Source of the DNA: an uncultured Chlorobiaceae bacterium
Lineage (GTDB): Bacteria > Bacteroidota > Chlorobiia > Chlorobiales > Chlorobiaceae
Direction: 5' to 3'
DNA length: 64,000 nucleotides
NCBI GenBank assembly: GCA_903882665.1
Contig: CAIRXW010000021.1
Span: 1 to 64,000, forward strand
Below are positions 10,251-28,097 of the stretch, in pieces. A program made the position numbers and the translations under genes. The notes beneath the pieces were generated by a model, which ran no database searches, was not told where the DNA came from, and saw only the letters and a program-made list of their open reading frames with translations. The first letter of the stretch is position 1; each line of letters starts with the position of its first letter.

Positions 10251-11708
10251 GTGATTGATTTTAATAAAAAAATACTCATTATTGGATTTGGCTCAGTATC
10301 TCAATGTACCGTCCCTCTTCTTTTTAAACACATCAATGTCGATTATACTCATGTCACCATTATGGACTTTGAGGATATTCGTGAAAAAGTAGCACCGTGG
10401 ACAGCATTGGGCGTTACCTACATTAATCATCAAATAACACCGTATAATATAGCACAAACCCTTTCGACCTATGTTGCCGAGGGCGATTTGATCATAGATT
10501 TAGCGTGGAATATTGATTGTTGTGAAATTCTTCAATGGTGTCATGATCATGGTGTCCTCTATATGAACACCTCGGTAGAAGTGTGGGATCCTTATACCGG
10601 GGTTGAGACTCGGCATCCTGCCGAAAGAACACTCTACTGGCGGCACATGAACATCCGCCGCATGACTTCAAAGTGGCAAAATAAAGGTGTCACGGCAGTG
10701 CTGGAGCATGGTGCCAATCCCGGATTGATATCGCATTTTACCAAACAAGGGTTGCTTGATATTGCCGACGCAGTCATTGCCCGGAACAAGGTCGGCCCAG
10801 CTCAAGCCGAAATTATTAAAGAGCTTTCTGAAAAAAGAATTTTCAATGAGCTGGCAATGGCGCTTGGCGTCAAAGTGATTCATTGCTCTGAAAGAGATAC
10901 GCAAATTTCTGATGTTCCAAAACAGGTTGACGAGTTTGTCAATACCTGGAGTGTTGAGGGATTCCGGGAAGAGGGTATGACAACGGCTGAAATGGGTTGG
11001 GGAACCCATGAAAAAGAGCTTCCGGAATTTGCTTATACCCATCAGGATGGACCGAAAAACCAGATTTGTGTGGCCAAAATGGGGATGAATACCTGGGTGT
11101 GTTCCTGGGTGCCTGATTATGACATCCGTGGCATGGTAGTTCGCCATGGCGAGGCTTTTACGATTTCAGACTACCTTACGGTCTCCAAAGAGGGGCAGGC
11201 CATCTACCGTCCAACGGTCCATTACGCCTATTGTCCGAGTGATGCCGCGATTACCTCTCTGCATGAGTTGCGTGGTTATGATTACAGGCTTCAGTCCAAT
11301 TTCAGGATTATGAATGATGAGATCATCAAGGGTTCTGACATTCTTGGTGCATTACTGATGGGTCATGCCTTTAATTCCTGGTGGACAGGTTCCGATTTGA
11401 GCATAGAGCAATCCAGAGCGCTGGTACCTCATCAGAATGCTACCACATTGCAGGTGGCAATATCCGTGGTCGCAGCCTGTATGTGGATGATAGAAAATCC
11501 TGACAGGGGTGTTGTTGTACCAGATAATATCGACCATGAGTATATCCTTGGAATTGCAAAACCTTATCTTGGCAACTTCATCTCAAAAGATTCCGATTGG
11601 ACACCGTTAAAATACAATCCCAACTTTTTTGCAGGGTTTAATACACCTGATATTGATGAAACAGATCCCTGGCAGTTCAAGAATTTTCTTATTACCGATA
11701 ATGATTAA
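10251..11708 (+). CDS. hss: Homospermidine synthase
   Basis: 485 aa, GTG start; Rossmann IIGFGSVSQ; NTSVEVWDPYTG and EHGANPGLISHFTKQGL typical of the family; next to a decarboxylase. Confidence 0.85.
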   Translation: MIDFNKKILIIGFGSVSQCTVPLLFKHINVDYTHVTIMDFEDIREKVAPWTALGVTYINHQITPYNIAQTLSTYVAEGDLIIDLAWNIDCCEILQWCHDHGVLYMNTSVEVWDPYTGVETRHPAERTLYWRHMNIRRMTSKWQNKGVTAVLEHGANPGLISHFTKQGLLDIADAVIARNKVGPAQAEIIKELSEKRIFNELAMALGVKVIHCSERDTQISDVPKQVDEFVNTWSVEGFREEGMTTAEMGWGTHEKELPEFAYTHQDGPKNQICVAKMGMNTWVCSWVPDYDIRGMVVRHGEAFTISDYLTVSKEGQAIYRPTVHYAYCPSDAAITSLHELRGYDYRLQSNFRIMNDEIIKGSDILGALLMGHAFNSWWTGSDLSIEQSRALVPHQNATTLQVAISVVAACMWMIENPDRGVVVPDNIDHEYILGIAKPYLGNFISKDSDWTPLKYNPNFFAGFNTPDIDETDPWQFKNFLITDND

Positions 11709-11723
11709 AACAGGAGACATTTA

Positions 11724-12863
11724 ATGGAAGCTCAATATTTGAAACAATTGGCATTAGAGCATGGCACACCGTTGTTTGTGGTAGACCACGAAGTATTGCG
11801 CGCCAATTACCGCGAGTTCAAGCAGCATCTTCCAAGGGTTCAGGCCTATTTCGCTGTAAAAGCCAACTCAGCCAAAGAAATAGTTAAAACCTTCTATGAC
11901 GCAGGTGCCAGCTTTGATGTTGCATCAATGCCCGAGTTTCTTACTGTCTACGAAAACATTAAAAGCCTGACGCCCGAAGAGCAACAGGATTTTATTTGGG
12001 ATAAGATCATTTATGCGAATCCGATAAAGCCAATACCGACCCTGAAGGAGCTCGACTGTTACAAGCCGCTGGTCACGTTTGATAATGAAGATGAAATAGC
12101 GAAAATCGCCACCTACGCCCCGAACACGGGTCTTGTTTTACGAATAAAAGTTCCTAATACCGGTGCGATGGTAGAGCTCTCTTCCAAATTTGGTGCAGAC
12201 CCAGGAGAGGCTGTTGATCTTATAGACAAAGCTTTCAAGAAAGGGCTGGTGGTCGAAGGTTTAAGCTTCCATGTCGGCAGCCAGTGCACAAATTTCCAGA
12301 ATTATGTTCAAGCCCTTAATCTGGCCTCCAATATCTTCAAGGAGTCGTGGGAAAGAGGGTATAAGGAGGTAAAAATTCTTGATATTGGCGGTGGTTTTCC
12401 CGCTCCCTACGACAACAGTGTCAAGCCTTTTGCCGAGCTTGCCGTCATGCTCAATTCCGAATTTGACCGACTCTTTCCGCCCGACATTGAAATCATAGCA
12501 GAACCCGGAAGATTTTTAGTGGCAACTGCTGCCTGGGTCGTGATGGAGATTATTGGTACCGCCTATCGTGACGGCAAAAGATGTTATTACGTCAATGACG
12601 GTGTATATCACACCTTTTCAGGGATTATCTTTGATCACTGCGAGTATCCTTTAAAATCTTTCAAAGAGGGCAATGAGAAGATGTGTGCGGTGTATGGACC
12701 TACCTGTGATGCTCTCGACACGATTACTATGGCCAACCTCTTGCCCGTAGATCTTGCGATAGGGGATTTGCTCTACAGTGAAAATATTGGAGCCTACAGT
12801 CACGCGTCATCGACTTTCTTTAATGGTTTTCCGCCTGCAAAGGTTTTGCATATAAATAGATAG
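11724..12863 (+). CDS. Ornithine decarboxylase-like, group IV PLP-dependent (alanine racemase fold)
   Basis: FAVKANSAKEIV PLP-Lys motif, GLSFHVGSQ, LDIGGGFPAPY, EPGRFLVATA, YGPTCDALDTI. Confidence 0.87.
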   Translation: MEAQYLKQLALEHGTPLFVVDHEVLRANYREFKQHLPRVQAYFAVKANSAKEIVKTFYDAGASFDVASMPEFLTVYENIKSLTPEEQQDFIWDKIIYANPIKPIPTLKELDCYKPLVTFDNEDEIAKIATYAPNTGLVLRIKVPNTGAMVELSSKFGADPGEAVDLIDKAFKKGLVVEGLSFHVGSQCTNFQNYVQALNLASNIFKESWERGYKEVKILDIGGGFPAPYDNSVKPFAELAVMLNSEFDRLFPPDIEIIAEPGRFLVATAAWVVMEIIGTAYRDGKRCYYVNDGVYHTFSGIIFDHCEYPLKSFKEGNEKMCAVYGPTCDALDTITMANLLPVDLAIGDLLYSENIGAYSHASSTFFNGFPPAKVLHINR

Positions 12864-12889
12864 CACCAACGGGCATGTTACGACATGCA

Positions 12890-12913
12890 GGGGGCACGCC
12901 GCGGCGTGCCCCC
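12890..12913. terminator. Perfect 24-nt palindrome gggggcacgccgcggcgtgccccc, putative terminator or structured element
   Basis: Perfect inverted repeat 27 nt downstream of the decarboxylase stop; no long T-tract follows. Confidence 0.6.
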
Positions 12914-13047
12914 TCGCTATCCATCCTTGTCTTGCAATATTACAATCAATCAATTCTACAATCAGTCAATCTGACTTTTGAATAAGAAGGCCGCGCTTGC
13001 GCATCCCAAGGATGAAACGGAGCGAGAAGTATCCCACGATACTTCTG

Positions 13048-13290
13048 CGCTTGCTTGAAAAATTCGGATATCCCCCGTCATCAATTCCAAAGGGCGAGTA
13101 GTCTTTTCTGACAGACGTTTTCACGGCGCTGTTGTTGTTACTGATTTGATAATTGAAGGGGATTGCGGCAATTCACAGGTGCCTGCTCGGAAATGGATTG
13201 CCGACAACCTCTCCGCCCGTGACGTTTTTTTTTGAACTTTATCCGTACATTGAAGCTGCTTTATTGGGCAACAATCACGACCTTGGTTTA
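13048..13290 (+). pseudogene. Decayed partial copy of the 5743..6003 gene, followed by a homopolymer-frameshifted reading frame
   Basis: Near-identical nucleotides to about 5891-5997 (tcaattccaaagggcg…gttgttgttactgattt) with indels; reading frame broken at T9 (13225-13233). Confidence 0.7.
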
Positions 13291-13303
13291 AAAGAAAAGA
13301 ACA

Positions 13304-13582
13304 TTGATTGATGAGCCTGAGCTTGGTTTGCACCCTTTTGCAATTCACCTTTTAGCCGCAATGCTTCGTTCCGTCTCTAAGCGGCGACAGTTGATTGTCT
13401 CTACGCAGTCCACAGATCTTTTGAACGAGTTTGATGCTGAGGATGTTGTTGTTGCTGATCGGACAGAAGGTTTTACCTGCCTGCACCGTCTGGACTCGCA
13501 GGCTCTGAAAAATTGGCTTGATGCATATTCTCTCGGAGAGCTATGGCAGAAAAACATACTTGGCGGGAGGCCATCACGATGA
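13304..13582 (+). pseudogene. C-terminal remnant of an OLD/RecF-like AAA ATPase
   Basis: IDEPELGLHP Walker B/D-loop and QLIVSTQSTDLL at the N-terminus of the ORF; Walker A half absent. Confidence 0.75.
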
Positions 13583-13614
13583 GCCGGGTTCATGTTTTTT
13601 GCGCCTGTGTTTGA
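13579..13614 (+). pseudogene. N-terminal remnant of a DUF4276-like protein
   Basis: ATGA overlap with the preceding remnant; MSRVHVFCACV then stop, resembling DUF4276 starts (MSRVHVFCEG…). Confidence 0.45.
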
Positions 13615-13738
13615 GGCATGGATTAAAAGAATTGAGGCTTTAACCTCTTGAGAATAAAAAACACTTCAATTGGGAACCCGATTTTGGGGTTTGTAGTGTC
13701 AATTTTGTTTATCTTTGCGTCCGTGCTGAGGTACCACC

Positions 13739-15136
13739 ATGAAACTTGCTACAATCGACATCACCTACTTCCGCTGCTTTGAGTCACTTGCGATCAAGCT
13801 TCACCCCGACATCAATGTTTTTGTTGGTGCCAATGGTGCAGGCAAAAGCAGCATTCTTGATGCCATCGCCATTGCACTGTACGAACTCGTCGCCGCAAAT
13901 GGTGGGGGAGGCAAGAGCCAGCGAAAAATGCAGGGGGCTGCACTTCAGGCTACGGATATTGCCATCACTCCCTCAATTGGAGAGTCTTTTGCCGGGCGCA
14001 AGCAATTCGTACAGATCAGTGCAGGGGTAACGGATTACTATCCAATCGAAGATTTCACAGGAAAAACACCTGACGGACAGAACGTACTGCTGGAGTGGAC
14101 AGATCACATTGTTTATAGTATTCCAGCCACGTTCATTTACGACACCAGCGCTTCGGAAAGAGTCTCAGAACTTCACTATTATATAACGCTCCTTTGGGAA
14201 GAAATCGTCAAAAGTCCGCAAGCATTGATTCCTTTGCCCGTTGTAGCCTACTACCGTGCTACTCGGAGGATGGAGGGAATGCCTGAACTTGGAGATATCT
14301 TTAAACTCGACCTTGCCAGAGACAAGGCATTCGTCAGTGCTCTCAATGCGGCTGCAAATTTTACTGCCATGTGCCAGTGGTTCTACTTGCGTGAGAACGC
14401 CGAACTCCGTGCCCATGTAAACGTCCAGAATGGCGACAGCACGGAGTTTGCTGACTTGCGTGCTGTACGAGAGGCATTGAAACTTACCATTGATGGACTG
14501 GAGCGTATTTACTTTGATGGCAGTCCACCACGACTGATGGTTGAAATCAGGGAGTTCGATGGCACTTTGCGTGCATTTGAGCTGGCGCAACTGAGCGACA
14601 GTTATCGTAACTTGCTTGCGCTGGTACTCGACTTCGCCCGTCGACTTGCTCAGGCCAATCCAAACTGGCCAAACCCGCTTGAAGCGCCGGGCATTTTACT
14701 TATTGACGAAATCGAACAGCACCTTCATCCTTGCTGGCAGCAAAAGATCATTCCCGCTCTTCGTGCAGCTTTCCCGAACACCCAGCTCATTGTTTCAACG
14801 CACAGCCCGGCGGTGCTCACCACAGTACGCCGCGAACATATCAAACTGCTTGGCGCCGACCATCAGTTTGAGCAGATCCTGGAAGATGTAGGTACCTACG
14901 GGGCGGACAACTCCCGCGTTCTGGCTGAGGTGTTTGGTACTTATCCTCGACCTCAAAATATTGATACAGTCCAACAATTAGCTGAATACTGGCAGGCGGT
15001 GGAAGCTCAAGAACACGATACCGATCAAGCAAAAGCTCTACGTCAAGAGCTTGAATCAGCATTGGGCACAAGCGATCCCGATCTTCTTCGCGCCGATCTT
15101 CGGATAAAACAGTTACAATTTTTGAAGCAACGATGA
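13739..15136 (+). CDS. SMC/RecF-like AAA ATPase (PtuA-like architecture, no partner nuclease)
   Basis: 465 aa; GANGAGKSS Walker A, ILLIDEIEQHLHPCWQ Walker B, QLIVSTHSPAVLTT. Confidence 0.8.
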   Translation: MKLATIDITYFRCFESLAIKLHPDINVFVGANGAGKSSILDAIAIALYELVAANGGGGKSQRKMQGAALQATDIAITPSIGESFAGRKQFVQISAGVTDYYPIEDFTGKTPDGQNVLLEWTDHIVYSIPATFIYDTSASERVSELHYYITLLWEEIVKSPQALIPLPVVAYYRATRRMEGMPELGDIFKLDLARDKAFVSALNAAANFTAMCQWFYLRENAELRAHVNVQNGDSTEFADLRAVREALKLTIDGLERIYFDGSPPRLMVEIREFDGTLRAFELAQLSDSYRNLLALVLDFARRLAQANPNWPNPLEAPGILLIDEIEQHLHPCWQQKIIPALRAAFPNTQLIVSTHSPAVLTTVRREHIKLLGADHQFEQILEDVGTYGADNSRVLAEVFGTYPRPQNIDTVQQLAEYWQAVEAQEHDTDQAKALRQELESALGTSDPDLLRADLRIKQLQFLKQR

Positions 15137-15292
15137 AATAAATCCAAGAGAAATATCGACTTAAATCAGACGAAATCATTTATATAAGCGCAATAGATTT
15201 GTATATTTAGAGCTATTTGATTTGAGTTGCTGACTTTTTTCAACTGTTGGCTTCACAGGTGTACAGCTTTTTTATTTTTATACTATACAAGA

Positions 15293-18061
15293 ATGCCGGG
15301 ATTACAACTGAGGGATGAATTTCTCGGGGCACACATGCCCGGCACAGCTATTGCACTGCGAACCAGCGATAACAAGGGCGCTGCCCAGAAGTCTGCTGAT
15401 TCTATTTTGTCGATCACCTACCCGACCTCCGATATCCAGACAGCCCTGAAGGCGATCAGTGTGAAAAACAGTGGGCGTCCCATCGTTGTTATGGGTGGTC
15501 GAGGGCGCGGAAAGTCACACATCATGGCGGTGATGCATCATGCCCTTCACTCTCCTCAAGTGGTGGAATCATGGCTCAAAGAGTGGGGTGCGAAGCTCGG
15601 CAATGATGAGCTAAGCAAGCTGGAACTGCTCAAGGGCTACTTCCCTATTTCCGAGCCTGTGCAAAATCAGGAATATCCGCGTCTCTGGGATCTTGTGTTT
15701 GAGCGTCATCCAAAAGGGGAGTATTACCGAGGCCATTTTGAGAGCATGTCTTCAACATTTCCGCCTCGCACTCTTCTGGAGAAGATGTTTGAAGAGCAGC
15801 CCATTGCTTTAATCCTTGATGAATTTCAGACATGGTATACCGGCCTGCCTGACAAAGATCCTAAAACAGGTCTTTTGCTCAAGCAATACGCCTACAACTT
15901 TGTGCAGATTATCTCTGAAATTGCTGCCGATCGCCCGGAGCTACTGATTTTTGTGATTTCGGTGCTCAATAATGATAATGAAGCCTTTAAGCAGGTGCAT
16001 CGGCAATCGCCTGTTATCATTGATTTTCGTGGCCCCTCAGCCCGGCAGGATCGCCAGAAACTTCTTTTGCACCGGCTCTTTGAAAACAGGCGCAATATTC
16101 AGCATGCAGATATTATCACAACTGCCGGCATCTACTCGACCGAGCGGTTTCGTTTGCTCTATGCCAACAAGTCCGAAGCTGAAAAGGAGCGGATTCAAAA
16201 CGAGGTCTTTACCTGCTGGCCCTTCACTCCGGAGCTGCTTGATCTGCTTGAAGACCACATTCTGCTCTCTTCGGCAGCACAAGAGACAAGGGATCTCATT
16301 CGGATTCTTGCCCAGGTGTTTCGCAGTCGCGGTGCGCTTGTGCCTGTCATTACTCCCGCCGATTTTTTTGTTGATGGTGAGTCAGACGAAGTGCAGACGC
16401 TGGTCGATTCCATAGCAGTTCAGGCAGGTCAGGAAAAACTCCGCCAGATAGCCCAGCGGAATCTTTTTGCGGTGCGTGATTCCGGCTCAACGGTTCCCCA
16501 TGTTCGTGAGCTGGTTAGCTCTCTCTGGATGCGCTCCATCTCCCAAGGAAAGAGTGCGGGTGGAACCCCGGCTGAGTTGCATCTTGATATTACCCGTGAA
16601 GCTTGTATCGACAACAACTCCTTTCAGGCTGAATTAGCCTTGCTTATCGAGAACAGTGTCAATATTCATGGTGACGAGGTGCCTGGCGGGCCACTCTGGT
16701 TTGGCATCAACGAGAACCCGCGTGCGAAGGTTCGGGCTTGTGCCAAAAATGACCGGCTCTGGCAATGCAGTGCTGCGCAAACGAGCGGGACGACGCTCTA
16801 CCCTGGTCAGGATATGCAGTGGATTCGAAAATATTTGCGATATGAGCTTGCTGGACAGGATATCCGGGAGAACGTATCCCGAATCATTGTTCTTGCCCAG
16901 AACTGGCGCGATGACCCCTGGAGTGAGCTGGAAGAAGCAGACAATCCTGCAAAATGGGATCGTCCGGTGCTTCTGGTCATTCCGGACAACATAGAGAGTG
17001 GTGAAGTGAATGCAACACTGGGCCCCTGGCTGGCAAAGCACGTCCAGAAAAGGCGTAACACCATTCGTTTTTTACTTCCAGCCGTTGATATGCCGGGCCT
17101 CTACAATGATAAAGAGCTTCTCTACTCGGCCCGGTGCAGCTATCTCTCTTCTCGTGAAGGATGGGGTTCTGACCCAGTATATTTCTCTTTGCACCAGGAT
17201 TTTAACCGACCGTTCCGCACCTTATTGAAGTCCTGTTACAATCGGCTTGCCCTTTTGCGGCAATGGAATTTTCAGCAACCGCAGCGCTGCCTCTTTGACC
17301 TTGAAAAAATAGCCGCACAAGGCGGGGAGATTCCGCCTGCTGTTGAGGCAAAGATTCTCTCTGACCTTTTCGACAAGAGCGAATTCCGCTCTTTTGTGCT
17401 GCAACGCGCAAAAGAGTCCGACTTTATGAGCTCTCTGCTTGACGACCTGATTGAGCCACCTCCACCTAACTCCGGAGAGGCAATTCCTTTCCTTGGAGAG
17501 ACAAAAATCAACGAGTTGGTGCTGGAGCTTGTCGCCGAAGGGGCCATTGTCCTCAATGTCAACGGAGAATGGATAAGGCGGCGCGACGAAGAGGACTCTG
17601 ACCAGGCTGCATTACGTTATATCCAGTCCAGAGCATTTCGCACCGGTCAGGAGTTACGCCAGATTCAGCTTGCCCTGCCTGGAGCCGCTGGTGGCGGAAC
17701 AGTCACCGCTCCGAATCCTCCCCCGGTTGTTCAGCCAGTGAGCAACGTGAATACTCCCTACTTACCATCACCTCCTTCTGGTGGAGGTATCGTAAGTGGT
17801 CTTGATGACAAGAGCGCCATCACCCAGCCAATACCCCGCCCAACGGCAAAAACCTGTAAATCCGCCGAACCAGCAACGGGAATCAACCTCTCGGGCTGTT
17901 TCGAATCATGGGGAGTCTCTTCCAGTCAATCCATTGAAACTGCACGCATCGAATTTTCTGGCCTTACCTCTCAGCAGATCAAGCAGATTCTGCAACGCAT
18001 ACCATCCTCATTCAAAGCGACACTCGATATCACCTGGCGCGATGGAGGCGATCAATCATGA
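15293..18061 (+). CDS. DUF499-type P-loop ATPase, BrxC/PglY-like
   Basis: IALRTSDNKGAAQKSADSILSITYPT; VMGGRGRGKSH P-loop; ALILDEFQTWY Walker B. Start moved from 15227 to ATG at 15293. Confidence 0.75.
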   Translation: MPGLQLRDEFLGAHMPGTAIALRTSDNKGAAQKSADSILSITYPTSDIQTALKAISVKNSGRPIVVMGGRGRGKSHIMAVMHHALHSPQVVESWLKEWGAKLGNDELSKLELLKGYFPISEPVQNQEYPRLWDLVFERHPKGEYYRGHFESMSSTFPPRTLLEKMFEEQPIALILDEFQTWYTGLPDKDPKTGLLLKQYAYNFVQIISEIAADRPELLIFVISVLNNDNEAFKQVHRQSPVIIDFRGPSARQDRQKLLLHRLFENRRNIQHADIITTAGIYSTERFRLLYANKSEAEKERIQNEVFTCWPFTPELLDLLEDHILLSSAAQETRDLIRILAQVFRSRGALVPVITPADFFVDGESDEVQTLVDSIAVQAGQEKLRQIAQRNLFAVRDSGSTVPHVRELVSSLWMRSISQGKSAGGTPAELHLDITREACIDNNSFQAELALLIENSVNIHGDEVPGGPLWFGINENPRAKVRACAKNDRLWQCSAAQTSGTTLYPGQDMQWIRKYLRYELAGQDIRENVSRIIVLAQNWRDDPWSELEEADNPAKWDRPVLLVIPDNIESGEVNATLGPWLAKHVQKRRNTIRFLLPAVDMPGLYNDKELLYSARCSYLSSREGWGSDPVYFSLHQDFNRPFRTLLKSCYNRLALLRQWNFQQPQRCLFDLEKIAAQGGEIPPAVEAKILSDLFDKSEFRSFVLQRAKESDFMSSLLDDLIEPPPPNSGEAIPFLGETKINELVLELVAEGAIVLNVNGEWIRRRDEEDSDQAALRYIQSRAFRTGQELRQIQLALPGAAGGGTVTAPNPPPVVQPVSNVNTPYLPSPPSGGGIVSGLDDKSAITQPIPRPTAKTCKSAEPATGINLSGCFESWGVSSSQSIETARIEFSGLTSQQIKQILQRIPSSFKATLDITWRDGGDQS

Positions 18062-21045
18062 AGAATATTGACTGGAACGCCCTCATTTTCGGTTCACACT
18101 CTGCGGCAACAGCGTGGATGGAGATATTCTCCTCTTTACTTGCGATTGCCCGGCAGACTTCATCGCCTGTTCTGCTTCATAATGCAACAGTTACTCCTGA
18201 CCGACTGTTGAGCGAAGCCGCCTGGGAACTTTGGGAAGCCTTTCCTCTGACAGCAGTAAAAACTTCAGCCAGCCTCAAAGAGTGGACACGTCAAAGTCCG
18301 GGAAAGGCTGTTCTCATCCTTGACGCTCTTTCATTACGGGAGTTGTCTCTTTTGCTTGGCGCGGCAGAAGCAAGGGGTATTCAGCCGCAGGAGGTGAAAG
18401 TTACTGGATCAGAATCTCCTTCAACCACCGACCACTTTGCCAAAGCCATCGGGTTGCCATCAAGAAGCGCCTTGGCCAACGACGGGAAACCTGGCACCCT
18501 GTCACTTTTCGACGGCAATTGTTTTACGGAAGAGCCAGGGCTGCACTGTCCGAAATGTGGAACCTTTGCCGGAAAGCGCCTTGTTGATCAGTTTACGCGT
18601 CACGTCCAGCCCGCACTTGGTGCCACAGCGCGAAAGAAAAAGGAGTTTGGTCTCAGGAACAAGCCGGTTCAGATGTACCTGCTCATCCATCCCGAATGGC
18701 TGAAAGGGGCATCAGGTTTTGACGGGGAGCGGGAGTATGGTGGATGGGCCGGAGCACCGGCAGAGGCAACCGCCGACTGGTTCACGAAACGGCTGGAAAA
18801 TTTGCGCGTTGTTGAGGTTCGAGGGGCTTCACTGCCGGATGAGGTGGTTTTGGCTGACGGGACGGTGATTGAGACTGCAATAGGTACAGTTCCATATAAA
18901 AAAACCAATAAAGGTATTAAGCCAGATAACGGAAAATATATTTGTGCTAATTGTGGCAGGAAAGAGAGCTTTTTTAATAGTGCAAGGGAATCTGAAAAAA
19001 CATTGCCGGTAACAAGTTATGCCTTGCAGTGTCATTGCCCCCAGTGTGATGCCGATGGCTATACTTATGGAGGGCGATATTTTAAAGCGCCTGATGCCTA
19101 TGATATTCAACGGCTCAATGCTGCTCAAATGGAGTGGAGAAACCGTTCAGAAATTGATTTAGCAGAATATTGGCCGCAGCAGGAGGTACCCATCGGTGAA
19201 CGTACAACCAAACGGGATAGTATGCAGCAATGGGGCTATACCCACTGGTGGAAAATGTTCAATCCTCGCCAATTATTAGTACACACTCACCTGCTCAAGG
19301 CTATTACGGAAGCTTCGGAAGATTCATGGCCTTTGGATGTGCGGGAACAGGCTCTTGGTGCTTTACAGTCGTATTTGCGTAACCAAAATATGTTTTCCTT
19401 TTATCACGTAAAACGAGATTGTCTCGCGCCAGCCCTTAGCAATTCAAATTATCATCCTAAAAGTGCGACGATCGAGGTTAGTGCATTCAGCTCTGGATAT
19501 GGCCCCTGGAAAACTACTGCGTTAGGAATTTTAAGTGGGCTTGAGTGGGCTTTGAAGCCTTGGGATCCTGTTATCAAAGAAGATGCTGGACAAGCAAAAA
19601 GTATTAGGGTTGAAATGAATGATCCTATTGTTCCAGGTAATGAAGCCTTTTGTGCTTCGTCAACAGATTTGTCGATTTTGGATGATCAACAGTTCGATAT
19701 GGTTATTACGGATCCACCCTTTGGTGATAATCTGTTTTATGCCGATCTGGCTGATTTCTTCTATGTCTGGTTACGAATTCCTCTCCGTAAATGGTATGCT
19801 GATTTGCGTGAAGAGGCTTATTTTGAATCGGAGCTTACTCCGCATAGCATGGAGGCAGTAGATAATACGGTGGAGCATCCAGATGACAGAGAAGATTACG
19901 AGAAAGAGCCCTTTATTGAAGCTAAACACTTGGTCAAGATTCGGGGTTTGACGGATAATTTGGTTCTTGCGGAAAAAGATTCAAATCCTTTTTACCGCCC
20001 GCAGCCGTCAAGCGACTTCTACAGCCAGACCTTGTCTGCCTGCTGGGCAGAAGCAAGAAGCCGTTTGAAAGATGGTGGTATTATGGCTTTTACCTTCCAC
20101 CACAACGAAGATCAGGCTTGGATTGATGTCCTTTTAGCTCTTTTTAATGCAGGTTATTTATTGGTAGCAACTTATCCTATCCGAAGCGATGAATCCAAGG
20201 GGGATAATGCTTCATTTGGTTCACAAAAAATAGAATACGACATCATTCACGTCTGCCGTAAACGTCTCGGAGAGCCGGAGCCGGTGAGCTGGGCGCGGAT
20301 GCGGCGCTGGGTGAAAGAGGAGAGCTTTCGCCTGAAGGAGCTGCTGGAACATACGCATGGCAAAGAGCTGCCGGAATCCGATTTGAGGGTGATTCTTCGG
20401 GGCAAGTCGCTGGAGTTTTACTCACGCCACTATGGCAAGGTGTTTACTGGCGACAATCAGGTGCTTGATGTGCGTGAAGCCCTGCTTGGCATCAATCAGC
20501 TTCTTGACGATTTGCTGGAAAACACCTCTTTGACCGGAGGCGTGCACCCTCCTGACAGTGCTGAACCGGCAAGCCGGTTGTACTTGCGTTTGTTCAAAAA
20601 GCGTACAGAGATGGAGCGTGACGAGCTGCACAAAACCCTGCGTGGCACCGGCATTGCCCAGGGAGACCTTGAGGCGCGGGGGTGGGTCAGGGTGGTTGGT
20701 AAAACCGTTGTGATGGTGCCAATCCTTGAGCGCATTGCCTTTTTTACCGAGCGTGGTCGTAACCGTAAGGTGATTAAAACAGACCTCGATCAGGCCCATT
20801 TTCTTGTAGGCGCGGCTTTTGTGGATTCAGGGCTGAAGATCGAAAGCGAGCTGAACAACCCGAACTTCAAGGTGAAACGCTCTGTTGATGAGCTGTTGCA
20901 CTGGTATGCTGAGGTTGATGATGATCCCGTCAACCGGGTGGCCGCCACCACCGCCTCACAACTTTTGGAGCGCTGGCGTAACCGCAAAGTCAAGCCAGAG
21001 CCAGCCCAACTCTCGCTTTTTGAAGTACTCGAATCAGATGAATAA
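18058..21045 (+). CDS. Chimeric protein: PglZ-like N-terminal segment joined to the C-terminal part of a DUF1156/COG1743 (PglXI-like) DNA methylase
   Basis: N-term VLILDALSLRELSLLLGAAEARG…SESPSTTDHFAKAIGLPSRSAL is PglZ-like; CPKCG zinc motifs; ITDPPFGDNLFYADLADFFYVWLR methylase motif IV; ATGA overlap with the upstream gene. Confidence 0.65.
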   Translation: MKNIDWNALIFGSHSAATAWMEIFSSLLAIARQTSSPVLLHNATVTPDRLLSEAAWELWEAFPLTAVKTSASLKEWTRQSPGKAVLILDALSLRELSLLLGAAEARGIQPQEVKVTGSESPSTTDHFAKAIGLPSRSALANDGKPGTLSLFDGNCFTEEPGLHCPKCGTFAGKRLVDQFTRHVQPALGATARKKKEFGLRNKPVQMYLLIHPEWLKGASGFDGEREYGGWAGAPAEATADWFTKRLENLRVVEVRGASLPDEVVLADGTVIETAIGTVPYKKTNKGIKPDNGKYICANCGRKESFFNSARESEKTLPVTSYALQCHCPQCDADGYTYGGRYFKAPDAYDIQRLNAAQMEWRNRSEIDLAEYWPQQEVPIGERTTKRDSMQQWGYTHWWKMFNPRQLLVHTHLLKAITEASEDSWPLDVREQALGALQSYLRNQNMFSFYHVKRDCLAPALSNSNYHPKSATIEVSAFSSGYGPWKTTALGILSGLEWALKPWDPVIKEDAGQAKSIRVEMNDPIVPGNEAFCASSTDLSILDDQQFDMVITDPPFGDNLFYADLADFFYVWLRIPLRKWYADLREEAYFESELTPHSMEAVDNTVEHPDDREDYEKEPFIEAKHLVKIRGLTDNLVLAEKDSNPFYRPQPSSDFYSQTLSACWAEARSRLKDGGIMAFTFHHNEDQAWIDVLLALFNAGYLLVATYPIRSDESKGDNASFGSQKIEYDIIHVCRKRLGEPEPVSWARMRRWVKEESFRLKELLEHTHGKELPESDLRVILRGKSLEFYSRHYGKVFTGDNQVLDVREALLGINQLLDDLLENTSLTGGVHPPDSAEPASRLYLRLFKKRTEMERDELHKTLRGTGIAQGDLEARGWVRVVGKTVVMVPILERIAFFTERGRNRKVIKTDLDQAHFLVGAAFVDSGLKIESELNNPNFKVKRSVDELLHWYAEVDDDPVNRVAATTASQLLERWRNRKVKPEPAQLSLFEVLESDE

Positions 21046-21066
21046 CTGCACAGGGAGAAGCAACCA

Positions 21067-22254
21067 ATGAAAATAGAGTCCATACGGTTAAAAAATTTCA
21101 AGGCATTCCGTGATGCTGAGTTGATTGATCTGCCGAATTTCTGCGTCTTTGTCGGGGCGAATGGTACAGGCAAGAGCACGATCTTTTCTGTGTTTGGCTT
21201 TCTGAAAGATGCTATCACCAGCAATGTCAACACGGCGCTTGCAAAGCTTGGCGGAAGCCGGGGGTTTTCAGAGGTGCGCAGCCGTAACGCCACCGGGCCG
21301 ATTGAGATTGAATTGAAGTTTCGCGAAGGGAGCGACACGCCCCTGACCACCTACTTTCTGCAAATCAATGAGGAGAACGGTCGGGTTATTATTGAGCGTG
21401 AAATTCTCAAATACCGCAGAGGCAGTGGTGGTCAGCCGTGGCATTTTCTTGATTTTTCGCGGGGGAAAGGGAGCGCTGTCACTAATGAACTGATGTCGGT
21501 TAACGATGTCAAAGAGTTGACTCGCGAAGAGCAGACGCTGAAATCACCGGATATTCTGGCTATTAAAGGGTTAGCGCAATTCAAGCGCTTTCCGGCTGTG
21601 GTGGCGCTTGGCAATCTTATCGAGAACTGGCATATCTCTGATTTTCATATCAGTCGGGCCCGTCCGGAGCAGGAGGCTGGTTATGCAGAGCATCTGTCGC
21701 GTGAGGGTGAAAACTTGTCGCTGGTCATCCAGTATCTTCATAATCACCATCCTGCCGCCTTCATTCAAATACTTGAGTTGCTGAAGCAGCGCATTCCCGG
21801 GATCTCTCAGGTAGAATCAAAAACCACCGAAGAGGGGCGGGTGCTGCTCAAGTTTCAGGATGGTTCGTTTGAAGATCCTTTTCTTGCCCGCTATGTTTCG
21901 GATGGTACCATCAAGATGCTGGCCTATCTGACGCTGCTCTATGATCCTTCCCCTCACCCGTTGCTGGGTGTAGAAGAGCCTGAAAATCAGCTCTATCCAA
22001 GGCATTTGCATGAGCTGGCTGAGGAGTTTCGCAACTATGCAAATCGGGGCGGGCAGGTGTTTGTTTCGACCCATTCACCTGATTTTTTAAATGCAACAAC
22101 TGTTGATGAGGTGTTCTGGCTCGTCAAAGAAGAGGGATATACCCAAATCCGTCGAGCCAATGAAAATGCGCAGATTGTTGCCTATATGAAAGATGGCGAT
22201 CAGATGGGCTATTTGTGGGATCAGGGATTTTTTGAGGGGAGCGATCCTCAATGA
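21067..22254 (+). CDS. AAA ATPase, AAA_21/AAA_15 family (OLD/AriA-like)
   Basis: VGANGTGKST Walker A; VSDGTIKMLAYLTLL; GVEEPENQLYP; VFVSTHSPDFLN. Confidence 0.82.
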   Translation: MKIESIRLKNFKAFRDAELIDLPNFCVFVGANGTGKSTIFSVFGFLKDAITSNVNTALAKLGGSRGFSEVRSRNATGPIEIELKFREGSDTPLTTYFLQINEENGRVIIEREILKYRRGSGGQPWHFLDFSRGKGSAVTNELMSVNDVKELTREEQTLKSPDILAIKGLAQFKRFPAVVALGNLIENWHISDFHISRARPEQEAGYAEHLSREGENLSLVIQYLHNHHPAAFIQILELLKQRIPGISQVESKTTEEGRVLLKFQDGSFEDPFLARYVSDGTIKMLAYLTLLYDPSPHPLLGVEEPENQLYPRHLHELAEEFRNYANRGGQVFVSTHSPDFLNATTVDEVFWLVKEEGYTQIRRANENAQIVAYMKDGDQMGYLWDQGFFEGSDPQ

Positions 22255-22808
22255 AAAACCTTGTTTTCTTTCTTGAAGAGCCCTCTGCACAAAGGATGCT
22301 TGAAGGGGTGTTGCCCAGATTTATCCCTTCTGATGTCGTGGTTCACTATGTGGTTTTTCAGGGAAAAAGTGATCTGGAAAAACAACTTCTCCGAAAGCTT
22401 CGTTTTTGGCAACGTCCTGATTCTGTTTTTGTTGTCATGCGCGATCAGGATTCCGGTGATTGCAGGGCTATAAAACGAAGACTTTTAGAGCTTTGCCAGC
22501 AGGCTGGGCGAGGTGAAGCTTTGGTTCGTGTTGCTTGCCATGAATTGGAAAGTTTTTATCTCGGTGATCTGGCTGCGGTTGAACGTGGGCTTGGTATCAG
22601 GGGGTTGGCTGCAAAACAGGGACAGAGTCGGTACAGAACTCCGGATAAACTTGGCTCTCCCTCTGAAGAATTGAAGAAACTGACAAACGGCAAATATCAG
22701 AAGGTTGCGGGTTCCCGTGCCATTGGTGGGCATCTCAATCTCGAAAAAAACAGCTCACACAGTTTTACCGTGCTTCTGTCGGGAATTAAAAAAGTGCTTG
22801 AATCTTGA
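22251..22808 (+). CDS. DUF4276-family TOPRIM-like protein
   Basis: ATGA overlap with the ATPase; FLEEPSAQRML (TOPRIM Glu) and VVMRDQDSGDC (DxD). Confidence 0.7.
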   Translation: MKNLVFFLEEPSAQRMLEGVLPRFIPSDVVVHYVVFQGKSDLEKQLLRKLRFWQRPDSVFVVMRDQDSGDCRAIKRRLLELCQQAGRGEALVRVACHELESFYLGDLAAVERGLGIRGLAAKQGQSRYRTPDKLGSPSEELKKLTNGKYQKVAGSRAIGGHLNLEKNSSHSFTVLLSGIKKVLES

Positions 22809-22812
22809 CATT

Positions 22813-23310
22813 ATGGAAACAATCTCGAACACGGTTTGGCAACGCAAGGGTTCATCGGTAATTTTTGACAAAGTGAGCCTTGGTGAGTTTATTCCCAAAG
22901 GGGCAATGATCTCTCTGCGGCATCTTCTGAGCTGGTCGCAGGGGTTTCCTGACGATCCGCCGGTAACAGGTCATACCATTCTGGTCTCCGGCCTTGAAGC
23001 CATTATTGAAACAATGGAACCGCCCGCGGCTGAGGCGTTTCTTGCCTGCACTGTCCGGCCATTGCTGAAAAATCTGCAAAATCGCTGGCCTGCCTGTGGG
23101 GTGGTGTTCGGATTTTCCTCTCATCCCAATGCTTTTGAAGTGACGGTTCTGGAAGAAGAGCTGCTTTTTCGCCGTCGTGACCGCAAGACGGTGCGTCTTT
23201 CGGACGGGTTATGGGATGGCAGTGCCGCGTTTGACTTGAAACGTGTTAATCGCCAGGGCGAAGAGGGGGGCGAGGTCACCGTTGGCTACTATGTCGATCG
23301 CATTTCCTGA
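22813..23310 (+). CDS. Hypothetical protein of the BREX-like cluster (possible BrxF-position protein)
   Basis: 165 aa from ATG 22813; 20-nt overlap with the helicase gene; no Walker A seen. Confidence 0.6.
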   Translation: METISNTVWQRKGSSVIFDKVSLGEFIPKGAMISLRHLLSWSQGFPDDPPVTGHTILVSGLEAIIETMEPPAAEAFLACTVRPLLKNLQNRWPACGVVFGFSSHPNAFEVTVLEEELLFRRRDRKTVRLSDGLWDGSAAFDLKRVNRQGEEGGEVTVGYYVDRIS

Positions 23311-26080
23311 AATAGAGCCAGGGCTGAAAGTCAGCCACAGGGAGCTTGGCGATGGTATGGTTGTTGGCCGTGAATCGACAGGCTTTGTCACGGTCTTTTT
23401 TCGGGCTCATGGTGACCGGCAGGTTCCGGCTGACTCTCTTCAATTGGCAACCGACCGTTTCGACCAGATTATCCGGGGTATGGTGCCGGTTACAAAGGAG
23501 CGGCTGGAGCGGCTCTGGCTGGCTGTTGAAGCTGAAGAACTTCCTCTGATGGAGAGTGCCGCAACCCTCACTTCCGCAAAAGTCGATCTGCTGCCGCATC
23601 AGATTGTATTGGTGCATCGTCTTACGAACGCCCGCCCCAAGCGATTTCTCATTGCCGATGAAGTTGGATTGGGCAAAACAATTGAGGTTGCGCTTATTCT
23701 TCGTGAGCTTGCATCGCGGGGTGAGTTGCAGCGGGCCATCATGATTGTGCCTGCCGGGCTGGTGGAGAATTGGCGAAGAGAGCTGAACGATGTGTTTAAT
23801 CTCGATTTTGAGGTGTTCGGCAGCGACGGTGACGTCACTGACCGAAAATCAAATGCCTTTGCCAAGCATAACCGGTTAATTGTTTCGGTCGATACGCTGA
23901 AACGGACATCAAGGGTGAAGCGCCTTCTTGCAGCTCCGTTATGGGATCTGGTTGTTTTTGATGAGGCCCATCATCTGAGCGTTTATCGCACCGGCAACAA
24001 GGTTAAAAAAACGGAAAACTTCAAGCTGGCTGAAGCAATTCGTGACCATTGCCGCGATCTTATTTTGCTCTCCGCCACTCCTCATCAGGGCGACCATTTC
24101 CGATTCTGGATGCTGATTCGCCTCCTCAGCCCTGAACTTTTCGAAAATGAGCACGATATGGTGCGCAATCGCCACCGGCTTAATGCGGTTGTGATCCGCC
24201 GTACCAAGGCTGATGCCTGTGCACAGGATGGCAGTTCGTTGTTTGTGCGGCGCATGGTGCATACCCAAGGGTTTCGGCTTTCGGAGAAAGAGCAGGAGTT
24301 TTATCAGGCACTTCTTTATTATTTGCAGGATGGATACAACCTTGCCGCCAGGAATGGCAACAAGGGTCGTGCCCTTGGTTTTGTCATGACCATCTTTCAG
24401 AAAATAGCCGCAAGCAGCTTTGCCGCCATCCGTTCAACCTTGCGTCGCCGCTTGTTGATGCTCACCATTCACGAAGGAATTGAGCGCGACGAGCGTCTCG
24501 ATGTTGATGGTCGTAACCGGGTGTTTGAAGAGGCGCGGCAATTTATTCACCAGATGTACGGCTTGCCCTTCGATGCGGTCGGCAATGCAGAGACAGAGCA
24601 GATTCTTGCTGATGCGAGGTATCAACTCCTCAAAAAACGTCGCGATTCGCTTTCGTTTTCCTCAACGGCGGAGAGTTACTCCGACCAGGAATATGATGCC
24701 GGAGCAAGCGAGGAGTCTGCAGCGACACTGGTTACGGTTGCCCTGCCACAGGAAAGGCAACGGATTTCAGCTCTTCTTGCATCATTTCCGGAGGGCGTTG
24801 AGTCAAAAATAGTGATGCTTGTTCATGCGCTGGAACAGATCTGGCAGCAGAATTCGGATGAGAAGGTCGTTATTTTTGCCACTTATCTTGGCACTGTTGA
24901 GGCCATTAAAAAGCAGTTGAGTGATCGTTTTCCCGACAAAGGTGTCGATATTCTCAAAGGTGGTGATCATGGGGCAAAAACGGCTGCTCAAAAACGGTTT
25001 CGACGCAAGGATGGCTCATCGGTACTGGTTTGCACGGCGGCAGGACGGGAGGGGATAAACCTCCAGTTTGCACGAATCCTCTTCAATTATGATCTGCCAT
25101 GGAACCCGATGGATCTGGAACAGCGGATTGGGCGAATTCACCGGTATGGGCAGGATTCAACGGCACAGGTCTACAACCTCGTGGCAACCGATACCATTGA
25201 AGGGCAGATATTTTTGTTACTTGAGGAAAAGCTCGCTGACATTGCGAAAGCCCTGGGAAAGGTTGACGAGCAGGGGCAAATTGCCGAAGATCTGCGAACA
25301 CAAGTACTGGGGCAATTGAGTAACGTCTTGAGTTATGACCGCCTCTATCAGGATGCTATCAGTGACCCTGCATTGCAACGGACACGGCAGGAGCTTGAAG
25401 TTGCCATGTTGAACGCCGACCTTGCCCGACAGGTTGTGTTTGAACTCTTTCAGGAACTTGACAAATTTAACCTCGGAGAGTACCAGAAATTTGACGATCA
25501 GGGCAAAGGAATGCAACGGCTGGTCAATTTCCTTGCACGCGCAGCAACGGTTTTGGGTTTGTCATTTCATCAAGAGGCTGATGCTCGACTGGTGTTGCAG
25601 AATAATGGAGAGCCACCTCTCTCCTTTACCACTGACCGTGACCTTGCCATGCAACATGAAAGTCTCTACCTTCTTGGGCTTGAGCATCACATGATCAGTA
25701 GCCTGCTGAATCGCTTTGCCAATGCTGAGACCCATTCCAGAGCTCTTGCAGGCAAAGCGGGCAGCATCAGGCAAAGCGGTCTTTTGACGATATGGAAGAT
25801 CAACACGCAGGGAAAAGATGGACAAATTCACCACCGCATCGCCCGTATCGGCATGAGCCTTGATGGTACCAGAGCCCCCTGGCTTGAACACCTTGATGAC
25901 GCGCTGCTAAGCATGGAAGCGCCGGTTTCAATAACACCGGAGGAGTGGAAAACGGTGGCCATCAACAAGAAATCGCACCTTCAGGAACTTTTGCATCGGG
26001 AGCTGAGCTACTGTGGAGTCATCAATGCTGAGACCACTTATGCGGCGACACTGCTCGCCGCAGTCGGAATGGAAAAGTAG
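23291..26080 (+). CDS. SNF2-family DNA helicase (BrxHII/DrmD/RapA-like)
   Basis: ADEVGLGKTIE Walker A, FDEAHHLS, LLSATPHQGD, VLVCTAAGREGINLQFA, MDLEQRIGRIHRYGQ; start moved from 23243 to ATG 23291. Confidence 0.88.
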   Translation: MSIAFPEIEPGLKVSHRELGDGMVVGRESTGFVTVFFRAHGDRQVPADSLQLATDRFDQIIRGMVPVTKERLERLWLAVEAEELPLMESAATLTSAKVDLLPHQIVLVHRLTNARPKRFLIADEVGLGKTIEVALILRELASRGELQRAIMIVPAGLVENWRRELNDVFNLDFEVFGSDGDVTDRKSNAFAKHNRLIVSVDTLKRTSRVKRLLAAPLWDLVVFDEAHHLSVYRTGNKVKKTENFKLAEAIRDHCRDLILLSATPHQGDHFRFWMLIRLLSPELFENEHDMVRNRHRLNAVVIRRTKADACAQDGSSLFVRRMVHTQGFRLSEKEQEFYQALLYYLQDGYNLAARNGNKGRALGFVMTIFQKIAASSFAAIRSTLRRRLLMLTIHEGIERDERLDVDGRNRVFEEARQFIHQMYGLPFDAVGNAETEQILADARYQLLKKRRDSLSFSSTAESYSDQEYDAGASEESAATLVTVALPQERQRISALLASFPEGVESKIVMLVHALEQIWQQNSDEKVVIFATYLGTVEAIKKQLSDRFPDKGVDILKGGDHGAKTAAQKRFRRKDGSSVLVCTAAGREGINLQFARILFNYDLPWNPMDLEQRIGRIHRYGQDSTAQVYNLVATDTIEGQIFLLLEEKLADIAKALGKVDEQGQIAEDLRTQVLGQLSNVLSYDRLYQDAISDPALQRTRQELEVAMLNADLARQVVFELFQELDKFNLGEYQKFDDQGKGMQRLVNFLARAATVLGLSFHQEADARLVLQNNGEPPLSFTTDRDLAMQHESLYLLGLEHHMISSLLNRFANAETHSRALAGKAGSIRQSGLLTIWKINTQGKDGQIHHRIARIGMSLDGTRAPWLEHLDDALLSMEAPVSITPEEWKTVAINKKSHLQELLHRELSYCGVINAETTYAATLLAAVGMEK

Positions 26081-26119
26081 AGAGTTTGTTTTGTTGCAAT
26101 TGTACCGATTGAAAAAATC

Positions 26120-26923
26120 ATGAACCAGAACACCCTTGCGCTTACTCCGGAAAACGAAGAGCTTAACCAAAAGCTCGCGCAACTTGCTGTGGAGTTTCTG
26201 GATCTTTTTACCCGTCACAAAGAGATGGTGGAGGATGAGTATGTTATTCTGACCTCACTCTATCTTGAGAAACTGGGTTGTTTTCAGCTTGAGTTACTGC
26301 AAAAGAAAACGGAAGCTGCCCGGCTTAAAATGAAAATGAAGTTGATACAGGCGGCAATAAACCGCGATGAGCGACCCGATTTGCAGGTGATAGAAAATTC
26401 AGTAGATAAAAAATTTCAGGATTATTATGCTGAAATTGAGGTTCAGGCTGCCGCTTTGGATCAAGCCAAAGATGTGCTGTCACATTTGGTTTCAGAAGAG
26501 GATACCCTGAAGCTGAAAGAGTTGTTTCGGGTGCTGTGCAAAAGGCTCCACCCTGATTTGAATCCGGATCAAACGGAAGATGAAAAAGAGTTGTTCATCA
26601 AGGTAAAATCGGCTTATGATCTGCAAAAAATAGCTGAACTGCAAAACATTCTTCTCTATCTTGATGAGTCGAAAAGGGAGAAGATTGTATCTATCTCAGG
26701 TGATGAGAAGAGGGAACGGATTGAGCATCTTGAAAGCAATGTCAAGTCGTTGACCGCCAAAATAGCCCAATTACAGCAAACCTTTCCGTTCAATGTTAAA
26801 GAGTTGATTTTTGATGAAAAATATATAGCGCAGAAACAGGGGGAGTTAAGAAGTGATATTGAAAAATTTGAGAAGGAAAGGGCCAAGTATGCAACACTTA
26901 TTGACATCATGACTGATGAGTGA
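26120..26923 (+). CDS. Coiled-coil protein with J-domain-like HPD motif
   Basis: LKELFRVLCKRLHPDLNPDQTEDEKELFIKVKSAYDL resembles DnaJ helix II-HPD-helix III; flanking charged coiled coils. Confidence 0.65.
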   Translation: MNQNTLALTPENEELNQKLAQLAVEFLDLFTRHKEMVEDEYVILTSLYLEKLGCFQLELLQKKTEAARLKMKMKLIQAAINRDERPDLQVIENSVDKKFQDYYAEIEVQAAALDQAKDVLSHLVSEEDTLKLKELFRVLCKRLHPDLNPDQTEDEKELFIKVKSAYDLQKIAELQNILLYLDESKREKIVSISGDEKRERIEHLESNVKSLTAKIAQLQQTFPFNVKELIFDEKYIAQKQGELRSDIEKFEKERAKYATLIDIMTDE

Positions 26924-27302
26924 ATCTCTCATACCCGTAACGCCAGGTTTGCTGGATCTCCTGCGTCGAGAGGGGCAAGGTATTGTGCCGTTTTCGCAGG
27001 AAATTCTGGTATTGGAAATAGTCGTTGCTGGTACAAGCTATTGTGCTGAAATTGAGAGCATTGAATCTTGTATCGTCCCTGAAAAATTTTTGACGATGAA
27101 AAGAGAGCCTGATAATAAATTTGACAAGTTTGCGATTGCTCTCTATTGTGACGACACTCGTATTGGATTTGTACCGGCAGCAACGAATCAGGTTTGTTCG
27201 CGTTTGATGGATGCCGGAAAATTATTTGTATGCAGGGTCGTTGCGAAAAACTGGATTGATAGCTGGCTGCAAATAGATGCCCATATTTTTATGGTTGACT
27301 GA
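26916..27302 (+). CDS. Stand-alone HIRAN-domain protein
   Basis: VVAGTSYCAEIE…LTMKREPDNKFDKFAIALYCDDTRIGFVPAATNQ; 8-nt overlap with the upstream gene. Confidence 0.72.
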   Translation: MSESLIPVTPGLLDLLRREGQGIVPFSQEILVLEIVVAGTSYCAEIESIESCIVPEKFLTMKREPDNKFDKFAIALYCDDTRIGFVPAATNQVCSRLMDAGKLFVCRVVAKNWIDSWLQIDAHIFMVD

Positions 27303-27371
27303 TTTCATCAAGCACTTTCAGCTTCCCCGCCAGACGTTTTTATGGCGCTGTTTCCGTTTTCAACTTCTGAG

Positions 27372-28034
27372 CTACACTATCTCCTCCAGCAATTCTACAA
27401 TCTCTTCCGGTCGCTGCACCAGGGCTTTTGCGCCAAACTCAATAAGCTCGTTTTCCGGACGGAATCCCCAGAGGACGCCGAGGGGGTACATTCCTGCCCT
27501 TGTGGCGGTCAGCATGTCGATTCCGCTGTCTCCGACGTAAAGTACTGAAGAGGGCTCTTCACCGAGCATCCGCGCAACAAGCAGGGCACCTTCGGGGTCG
27601 GGTTTGTGGGCTATGGCGCTGTGATGGCCCATGACTACATCAAAATCCCACTCTTTCAGCAGTTCATCTGCGCAGAGTTGGGTGAAGTGGTCGGCTTTGT
27701 TTGAGAGGATTGCTTTTTTGATGCCGCGTTCTGTAAGAGCGTCGAGCAGGGTGCTGATGCCGGGATAGGGACGTGAGTGACGGTTCCAGTTGTCGCTGTA
27801 GTGCGTCATCAGCTCTTTGAGCAGAAAATCGATAGTCTCCGGAGTTCCGGCCTCTTCGGGCAGTGCTTTTTTGACCAGTTCCCTCATGCCGTGCCCGACG
27901 AGAAAGCGGCACTTATCGATGGTATGGATAGGATAGTTGTGCAGGGCAAGGACGGTATTGAGGGTGTTGACAATATCCTGGAGGGTGTTGAGCAAGGTGC
28001 CGTCAAGGTCGAAGATAACTGCTTTGAAGGTCAT
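27372..28034 (-). CDS. gph: HAD-superfamily hydrolase, phosphoglycolate phosphatase-like
   Basis: MTFKAVIFDLDGTLLNTL, AILSNKADH, YVGDSGIDMLTA. Confidence 0.87.
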   Translation of the reverse strand: MTFKAVIFDLDGTLLNTLQDIVNTLNTVLALHNYPIHTIDKCRFLVGHGMRELVKKALPEEAGTPETIDFLLKELMTHYSDNWNRHSRPYPGISTLLDALTERGIKKAILSNKADHFTQLCADELLKEWDFDVVMGHHSAIAHKPDPEGALLVARMLGEEPSSVLYVGDSGIDMLTATRAGMYPLGVLWGFRPENELIEFGAKALVQRPEEIVELLEEIV

Positions 28035-28097
28035 AAGGGAGATGCTCTGGTTTTGGTGAATTCGGGTGTGTGTCACAGGAATAATGCGTCATGGAAT

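What the first reader, a model, noticed from the sequence alone, without database searches (positions are those of the whole stretch)
15293..27302. Rearranged BREX type 3-like defence island with J-domain-like and HIRAN accessory genes
Seen: co-directional, often overlapping genes encode a DUF499-type ATPase, a DUF1156/COG1743-type methylase, a SNF2 helicase, an HPD-motif coiled-coil protein and a HIRAN protein. Established: BREX type 3 is brxF-brxC(DUF499)-pglXI-brxHII-pglZ-brxA. Inference: brxC, pglXI and brxHII equivalents are present. No complete pglZ and no recognisable brxA are present, and extra genes replace them. This may be an undescribed BREX-derived variant or a decaying one.
Basis: partly seen in the sequence, partly recalled or inferred. 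Interest (0 to 1): 0.85.

Follow-up and report, generated by a model that had tools for sequence, protein, structure and literature searches.

The report
Broken BREX-related (Type-3 BR) defence island
This stretch of a green sulfur bacterium's chromosome holds a known kind of BREX-related anti-phage system whose two key enzymes have been spliced into one broken gene by a deletion, followed by a small, apparently undescribed J-domain plus HIRAN gene pair that keeps turning up beside restriction systems.

Summary
The genes are real, but the cluster is not a rearranged BREX type 3. Homologous loci from many phyla (29 fetched, some partial) share one order: DUF499 ATPase, standalone PglZ (~317 aa), DUF1156 methylase (~1,200 aa), a ~166-aa P-loop-like protein, SNF2 helicase. 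This matches the 'Type-3 BREX-Related (BR) system' published in January 2026 (PMC12839542). The window copy carries a derived in-frame deletion. Its 18058-21045 ORF joins PglZ residues 1-157 to the methylase from about residue 352, missing 2.2 kb relative to the nearest relative. Lost are most PglZ metal ligands, the DUF1156 domain and the methylase SAM-binding motif. Both genes are intact in that relative's island (L006+L082), and the lost parts are absent elsewhere in the window's genome. The J-domain and HIRAN genes do not replace pglZ/brxA. They form a conserved pair in 10 of 66 same-genus genomes plus four others, usually last and co-directional after various restriction systems (Type-3 BR, Hma/Type-1 BR, Type III, Type IIG). 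That pair is the only part that looks undescribed.

The parts
13304..13582 (+). relic: 92-aa ORF resembling the C-terminus of the OLD-type ABC ATPase HEC-01 (residues 302-391)
   Evidence: blastp 32%; same relic in L006
13739..15136 (+). solitary PtuA-like ABC ATPase (Septu A), no PtuB beside it
   Evidence: PADLOC PDLC00311 553 bits; 98% identical in L006
15293..18061 (+). DUF499/BrxC-like AAA+ ATPase, 922 aa, Walker A GGRGRGKS and Walker B LILDEF intact; core gene 1 of the Type-3 BR system
18058..18528 (+). PglZ remnant: residues 1-157 of ~318; keeps D89/S92, loses D183, H187, D227, H228, H300
   Evidence: PglZ fold of the intact homologue
18528..18530 (+). deletion junction (2-3 nt shared, GGA/GA); 2,176 bp missing relative to L006, 3,224 bp relative to G211
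18529..21045 (+). C-terminal ~838 aa of the DUF1156 N6-methylase fused in frame to the PglZ piece; DPPF (motif IV) kept, DCFMGGGT (motif I, SAM binding) and DUF1156 lost
21067..22254 (+). HEC-01 ATPase (OLD-type ABC ATPase), accessory insertion
   Evidence: PADLOC PDLC04144 669 bits; same insertion point in L002, L005, L013, L016, L017, L025
22251..22808 (+). HEC-01 partner, DUF4276
   Evidence: PADLOC PDLC04143 281 bits; Pfam PF14103
22813..23310 (+). 165-aa conserved core protein, probable iSTAND (P-loop-like fold, no Walker A)
   Evidence: present in ~20 homologous loci; model pLDDT 86, best fold matches are P-loop ATPases but weak
23291..26080 (+). SNF2 helicase, BrxHII-like, 929 aa, no nuclease domain
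26120..26923 (+). coiled-coil protein with J-domain (HPD at residues 144-146), first gene of the J-HIRAN pair; not part of the BR core
26916..27302 (+). HIRAN protein, second gene of the J-HIRAN pair, overlaps the J gene by 8 bp

Best explanation
The region is a Type-3 BREX-Related (BR) phage-defence island at a variable chromosomal site between the carboxynorspermidine decarboxylase gene and a HAD phosphatase/phosphate-transport operon. In intact relatives the working parts are the DUF499 ATPase, PglZ, N6-methylase, iSTAND-like protein and SNF2 helicase. By inference from BREX, the methylase marks self DNA; ATPase, iSTAND and helicase recognise and move on unmarked DNA; PglZ is the effector nuclease. 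In the window copy one deletion fused pglZ to the methylase gene in frame, removing most of the PglZ active site and the methylase SAM-binding region together (shown by sequence). It therefore should neither methylate nor use PglZ, and losing effector and self-protection in one step would make the loss harmless to the cell (inference). The J-HIRAN pair downstream is a separate resident module that accompanies several unrelated restriction systems (shown). A plausible role is that HIRAN holds DNA ends while the J-domain recruits DnaK (inference).
For: The same five-gene order occurs in homologous loci from Chlorobi, Desulfobacterota, Planctomycetes, Chloroflexi, Halomonas and Methanococcoides. 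Published definition: DUF499 ATPase, DUF1156 methylase, nuclease-free BrxHII-like helicase, standalone PglZ, iSTAND (PMC12839542). The PglZ homologue is PorX-PglZ-like (Foldseek E 1e-8; BREX PglZ 9zn5 E 3e-5) with conserved metal residues. The deletion junction maps against two intact relatives. The missing pieces are absent from the rest of the genome. The nearest relative has the same island with intact PglZ and a methylase open to the contig end. J-HIRAN recurs without the BR system.
Against: The fused ORF is still open over 995 codons; a random junction keeps frame about 1 time in 3, but a selected fusion would too. All other core ORFs are intact, so either inactivation is recent or the remaining parts retain a use. 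The iSTAND assignment by fold is weak (best E 0.022). I found no functional data for a Type-3 BR system.
Confidence: 0.85

Rival explanations
1. The fusion is an assembly artefact of mixed strains; the real genome has an intact Type-3 BR system.
For: The nearest relatives are intact, and identity around the junction is mosaic: the PglZ end resembles G211 while the flanking ATPase resembles L006.
Against: The assembly is 99.88% complete with 0.08% contamination, and the window lies on one contig of at least 64 kb. The lost pieces are found on no other contig.
Confidence: 0.1
2. The PglZ-methylase fusion is a functional new protein, a variant BR system with a single specificity/effector polypeptide.
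For: The reading frame is kept through the junction. The surrounding genes are intact and show dN/dS of 0.07-0.28 against the nearest relative.
Against: Five conserved PglZ active-site residues and the methylase SAM motif and DUF1156 domain are missing. No other genome searched shows the fusion. dN/dS against the relative mostly reflects time before the deletion.
Confidence: 0.04
3. One reading: an undescribed BREX type 3 derivative in which J-domain and HIRAN genes have replaced pglZ and brxA as components.
For: The J and HIRAN genes follow the helicase by 39 bp, co-directionally, here and in the sister genome G334.
Against: No J or HIRAN match in the other BR loci, nor a J match in 12 BR-bearing genomes. 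Only 2 of the 10 same-genus genomes with the pair have the close BR helicase. The five-gene core is complete without it.
Confidence: 0.03

Closest known systems
Type-3 BREX-Related (BR) system (Rakesh & Krishnan, NAR 2026, PMC12839542)
   Same: DUF499 ATPase, DUF1156 N6-methylase, BrxHII-like helicase without nuclease, standalone PglZ and a small iSTAND-like protein as separate genes; OLD-ABC accessory modules nearby
   Different: In the window pglZ and the methylase gene are truncated and fused by a deletion; HEC-01, solitary PtuA and J-HIRAN neighbour the core
BREX type 3 (brxF-brxC-pglXI-brxHII-pglZ-brxA)
   Same: Related ATPase, methylase, helicase, PglZ and an iSTAND (BrxF-like) component
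   Different: No brxA; short standalone PglZ (317 aa); DUF1156 methylase; different gene order
Hma / Type-1 BR (PADLOC 2021, PMC8565338)
   Same: Homologous helicase (HmaA 1e-100), methylase (HmaB 1e-23) and ATPase (HmaC by profile)
   Different: Hma has no PglZ or iSTAND; its helicase usually carries a nuclease (PMC12839542)
HEC-01 (PADLOC candidate; OLD-type ABC ATPase + DUF4276)
   Same: 21067-22808 matches both HEC-01 models at 669 and 281 bits
   Different: Here inserted inside the BR operon, as also in L002, L005, L017 and L025
HIRAN proteins of PADLOC candidate PDC-M03
   Same: HIRAN domain similarity (E about 1e-7)
   Different: The window protein lacks the ~120-aa N-terminal part of PDC-M03B, and the J protein matches no PADLOC family

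Membership tests
Type-3 BR system | DUF499-type AAA+ ATPase | tested here: met
   15 of 17 family members hit PF04465, best 3.7e-6; profile match to HmaC, E 2e-8; Walker A/B intact
Type-3 BR system | DUF1156 N6-methylase with its catalytic motifs | tested here: not met
   Family yes (HmaB 1.5e-23; DUF1156 in homologue P0004), but the window copy lacks the DUF1156 domain and motif I. So: a degraded member
Type-3 BR system | active standalone PglZ | tested here: not met
   Intact in homologous loci and PorX/BREX-PglZ-like; window keeps only residues 1-157, fused to the methylase. So: a degraded member
Type-3 BR system | BrxHII-like helicase without nuclease | tested here: met
   929 aa, SNF2 + Helicase_C only, no nuclease domain in Pfam
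Type-3 BR system | iSTAND component | tested here: inconclusive
   Conserved 165-aa gene in the right place without a Walker A; fold matches P-loop ATPases only weakly, E 0.022
Type-3 BR system | anti-phage activity and site-specific m6A | not testable with these tools
   needs experiments
BREX type 3 | brxA present; order brxF-brxC-pglXI-brxHII-pglZ-brxA | tested here: not met
   No brxA hit among the island ORFs; order differs here and in the homologous loci
Hma / Type-1 BR | three-gene core, helicase usually with C-terminal nuclease | tested here: not met
   Family has PglZ and a fifth core gene; helicase has no nuclease
HEC-01 | ATPase plus DUF4276 partner, adjacent | tested here: met
   669 and 281 bits, 4-bp gene overlap
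Septu (PtuAB) | PtuA with PtuB HNH nuclease | tested here: not met
   Only PtuA; the next gene is the DUF499 ATPase

The most novel reading that the evidence does not exclude
The J-domain/HIRAN pair is an undescribed two-gene defence module. It sits last in operons of mechanistically different restriction systems, and might couple DnaK to DNA ends or stalled forks produced by restriction, either as an accessory or as a stand-alone system.
Probability: 0.4. Interest if true: 0.55.

Novelty: new member of a known kind. Interest (0 to 1): 0.35.

Why it matters
It fixes the identity of the island, a Type-3 BR system only named in 2026, and supplies a natural lesion that removes effector and self-protection in one event, as expected if neither is safe or useful without the other. 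It also points to a small conserved J-HIRAN pair that recurs beside BR, Hma, Type III and Type IIG systems, which makes a chaperone link to DNA restriction testable.

Tried and rejected
BREX type 3 membership: rejected (no brxA, different order, short PglZ). The 18058 ORF as a plain methylase: rejected after homologues aligned only from residue ~158 and a separate upstream ORF matched residues 4-167. J-HIRAN as part of the BR core: rejected (the empty answer has no positive control inside that call, but the same profile found G631). J gene on plasmids: none found. HIRAN in phages: one weak hit to a Xanthomonas phage. CoCoNuT paper checked for a DnaJ/HIRAN pair: no DnaJ mentioned, and HIRAN only as a fold likeness. 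A paper holding both words was a false lead. PDB sequence searches with PglZ and ATPase gave nothing useful; the fold search worked for PglZ. More distant J-like proteins in the phylum have no HIRAN neighbour and were not followed.

Full report
Observation. From 5' to 3' on the + strand: a PtuA-like ATPase (13739-15136), a DUF499-like ATPase (15293-18061), a 995-aa ORF (18058-21045), the HEC-01 ATPase and DUF4276 pair (21067-22808), a 165-aa gene (22813-23310), an SNF2 helicase (23291-26080), a coiled-coil J-domain protein (26120-26923) and a HIRAN protein (26916-27302). A phosphoglycolate-phosphatase-like gene follows on the other strand.

What the core is. One scan of genome contigs with the 995-aa protein gave 29 loci from many phyla, some partial. 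Where the contig is long enough, they show the order DUF499 ATPase (~930 aa), ~317-aa protein, ~1,200-aa methylase, ~166-aa protein, SNF2 helicase (~930 aa). Most relatives match the window ORF only from residue ~158, and residues 4-167 match the separate ~317-aa gene upstream. That 317-aa protein is a PglZ: weak PADLOC PglZ hits, conserved alkaline-phosphatase-superfamily residues D89, S92, D183, H187, D227, H228 and H300, and a model (pLDDT 83) whose best solved neighbours are PorX PglZ structures (E 1e-8), with BREX PglZ 9zn5 also found (E 3e-5). The ~1,200-aa protein is a DUF1156 methylase of the HmaB/PglXI kind, with motif I (D.FMGGGT) near residues 124-178 and DPPF near 702-819. The fifth gene's model resembles P-loop ATPases only weakly and has no Walker A, as expected of an inactive STAND but not proof of it.

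Known system. Rakesh and Krishnan (PMC12839542) define Type-3 BREX-Related systems by these parts: DUF499 ATPase, DUF1156 methylase, BrxHII-like helicase without nuclease, standalone active PglZ, iSTAND. They report 569 taxa, and describe OLD-ABC modules as recurrent accessories of BREX and BR systems. The family is therefore described, and the order seen here is the order of its homologues, not a rearranged BREX type 3. No PADLOC model reaches 0.01 for the window ATPase, so standard tools would call the island incomplete.

The lesion. Window 11474-18527 aligns to L006 1-7053, and window 18529 onward to L006 9231 onward: 2,176 bp are missing relative to L006, and 3,224 bp relative to G211, which carries a PDC-M02 pair in the gap. 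Two to three bases are shared at the junction. The ORF keeps 157 PglZ residues and the methylase from about residue 352. PglZ D183, H187, D227, H228 and H300, the DUF1156 domain and methylase motif I are gone. The missing parts occur nowhere else in the 99.88%-complete genome. The nearest relative (G334/G399, loci L006 and L082) has the same island with pglZ intact and the methylase open up to a contig break near its end. The deletion is thus derived and, so far as searched, private. Loss of methylase and PglZ activity is inferred from motifs, not from an assay.

Mosaic. Against L006/L082 the ATPase and helicase are 91-100% identical in 200-base bins. The methylase centre (18729-20128) is only 59-79% identical to both nearest relatives, while 20329-22328 is 92-98% identical to G211. 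This fits exchange of the target-recognition part (inference).

J-HIRAN. The J gene has a match in 12 same-genus genomes, three of them fragments, with further matches in other orders and weaker ones across the phylum. HIRAN occurs in 10 of 66 same-genus genomes, each beside a J gene. Three more distant genomes of the phylum (L090, L091, L092) and one genome in the phylum of L003 (L120) carry the same pair; the first three share about 26-31% identity with the window J protein. HPD is invariant in the 11 aligned J proteins. Only the window and its sister G334 have the close BR helicase next to the pair. Elsewhere the upstream neighbours are HmaC/DUF499 plus YhcG (L083), HmaC (L047), Type III restriction enzyme plus YhcG (L085), a Type III fragment (L084), Type IIG plus a PDC-S70 gene (L087), and Type IIG plus a PLD-SNF2 helicase (L091). 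No adjacent defence gene was recognised at L086, L092 or L120. I did not compute a background rate for this association. In L082-L085 the pair keeps the same right-hand neighbour, the HAD phosphatase gene, so in this genus it looks like an old resident of a defence hotspot; L089 shows a decayed J gene at that site without the island. Literature searches found no description of such a pair, within an open-access library only.

Mechanism. In intact relatives: the methylase marks self; ATPase, iSTAND and helicase survey and move on unmarked DNA; PglZ acts as effector (inference from BREX and PMC12839542). In the window, marking and effector functions were removed together, so the remaining ATPase and helicase are presumably idle. 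HEC-01 may still work on its own (inference). For J-HIRAN, the J-domain probably recruits DnaK and HIRAN probably binds DNA ends (inference from the domain families; HIRAN end binding is known for HLTF, from my own knowledge). A host DnaJ is known to matter for one unrelated defence protein, bNACHT25 (PMC12169576).

Noticed in passing
window 26120-27302; L083, L085, L087, L091, L120: J-domain and HIRAN genes form a conserved pair, usually co-directional and last after a restriction system; no published description found.
   Followed up: partly
window 18729-20128: The methylase centre is 59-79% identical to both nearest relatives while flanking genes reach 91-100%, suggesting target-recognition exchange.
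   Followed up: partly
window 21067-22808; L002, L005, L017, L025: HEC-01 pair inserted at the same point of the BR operon in several lineages.
   Followed up: partly
L006:7576-8178: 200-aa ORF between pglZ and the methylase is a PDC-M02B gene with residues 98-278 deleted (compare L002:7791-8948).
   Followed up: yes
window 13739-15136: Solitary PtuA with no PtuB nuclease beside it.
   Followed up: no
window 13304-13582: Relic of an OLD-type ATPase C-terminus upstream of the island.
   Followed up: no
window 12863-28076; L082-L085, L089: The site between the carboxynorspermidine decarboxylase gene and the HAD phosphatase/phosphate-transport operon looks like a defence hotspot in this genus.
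   Followed up: partly
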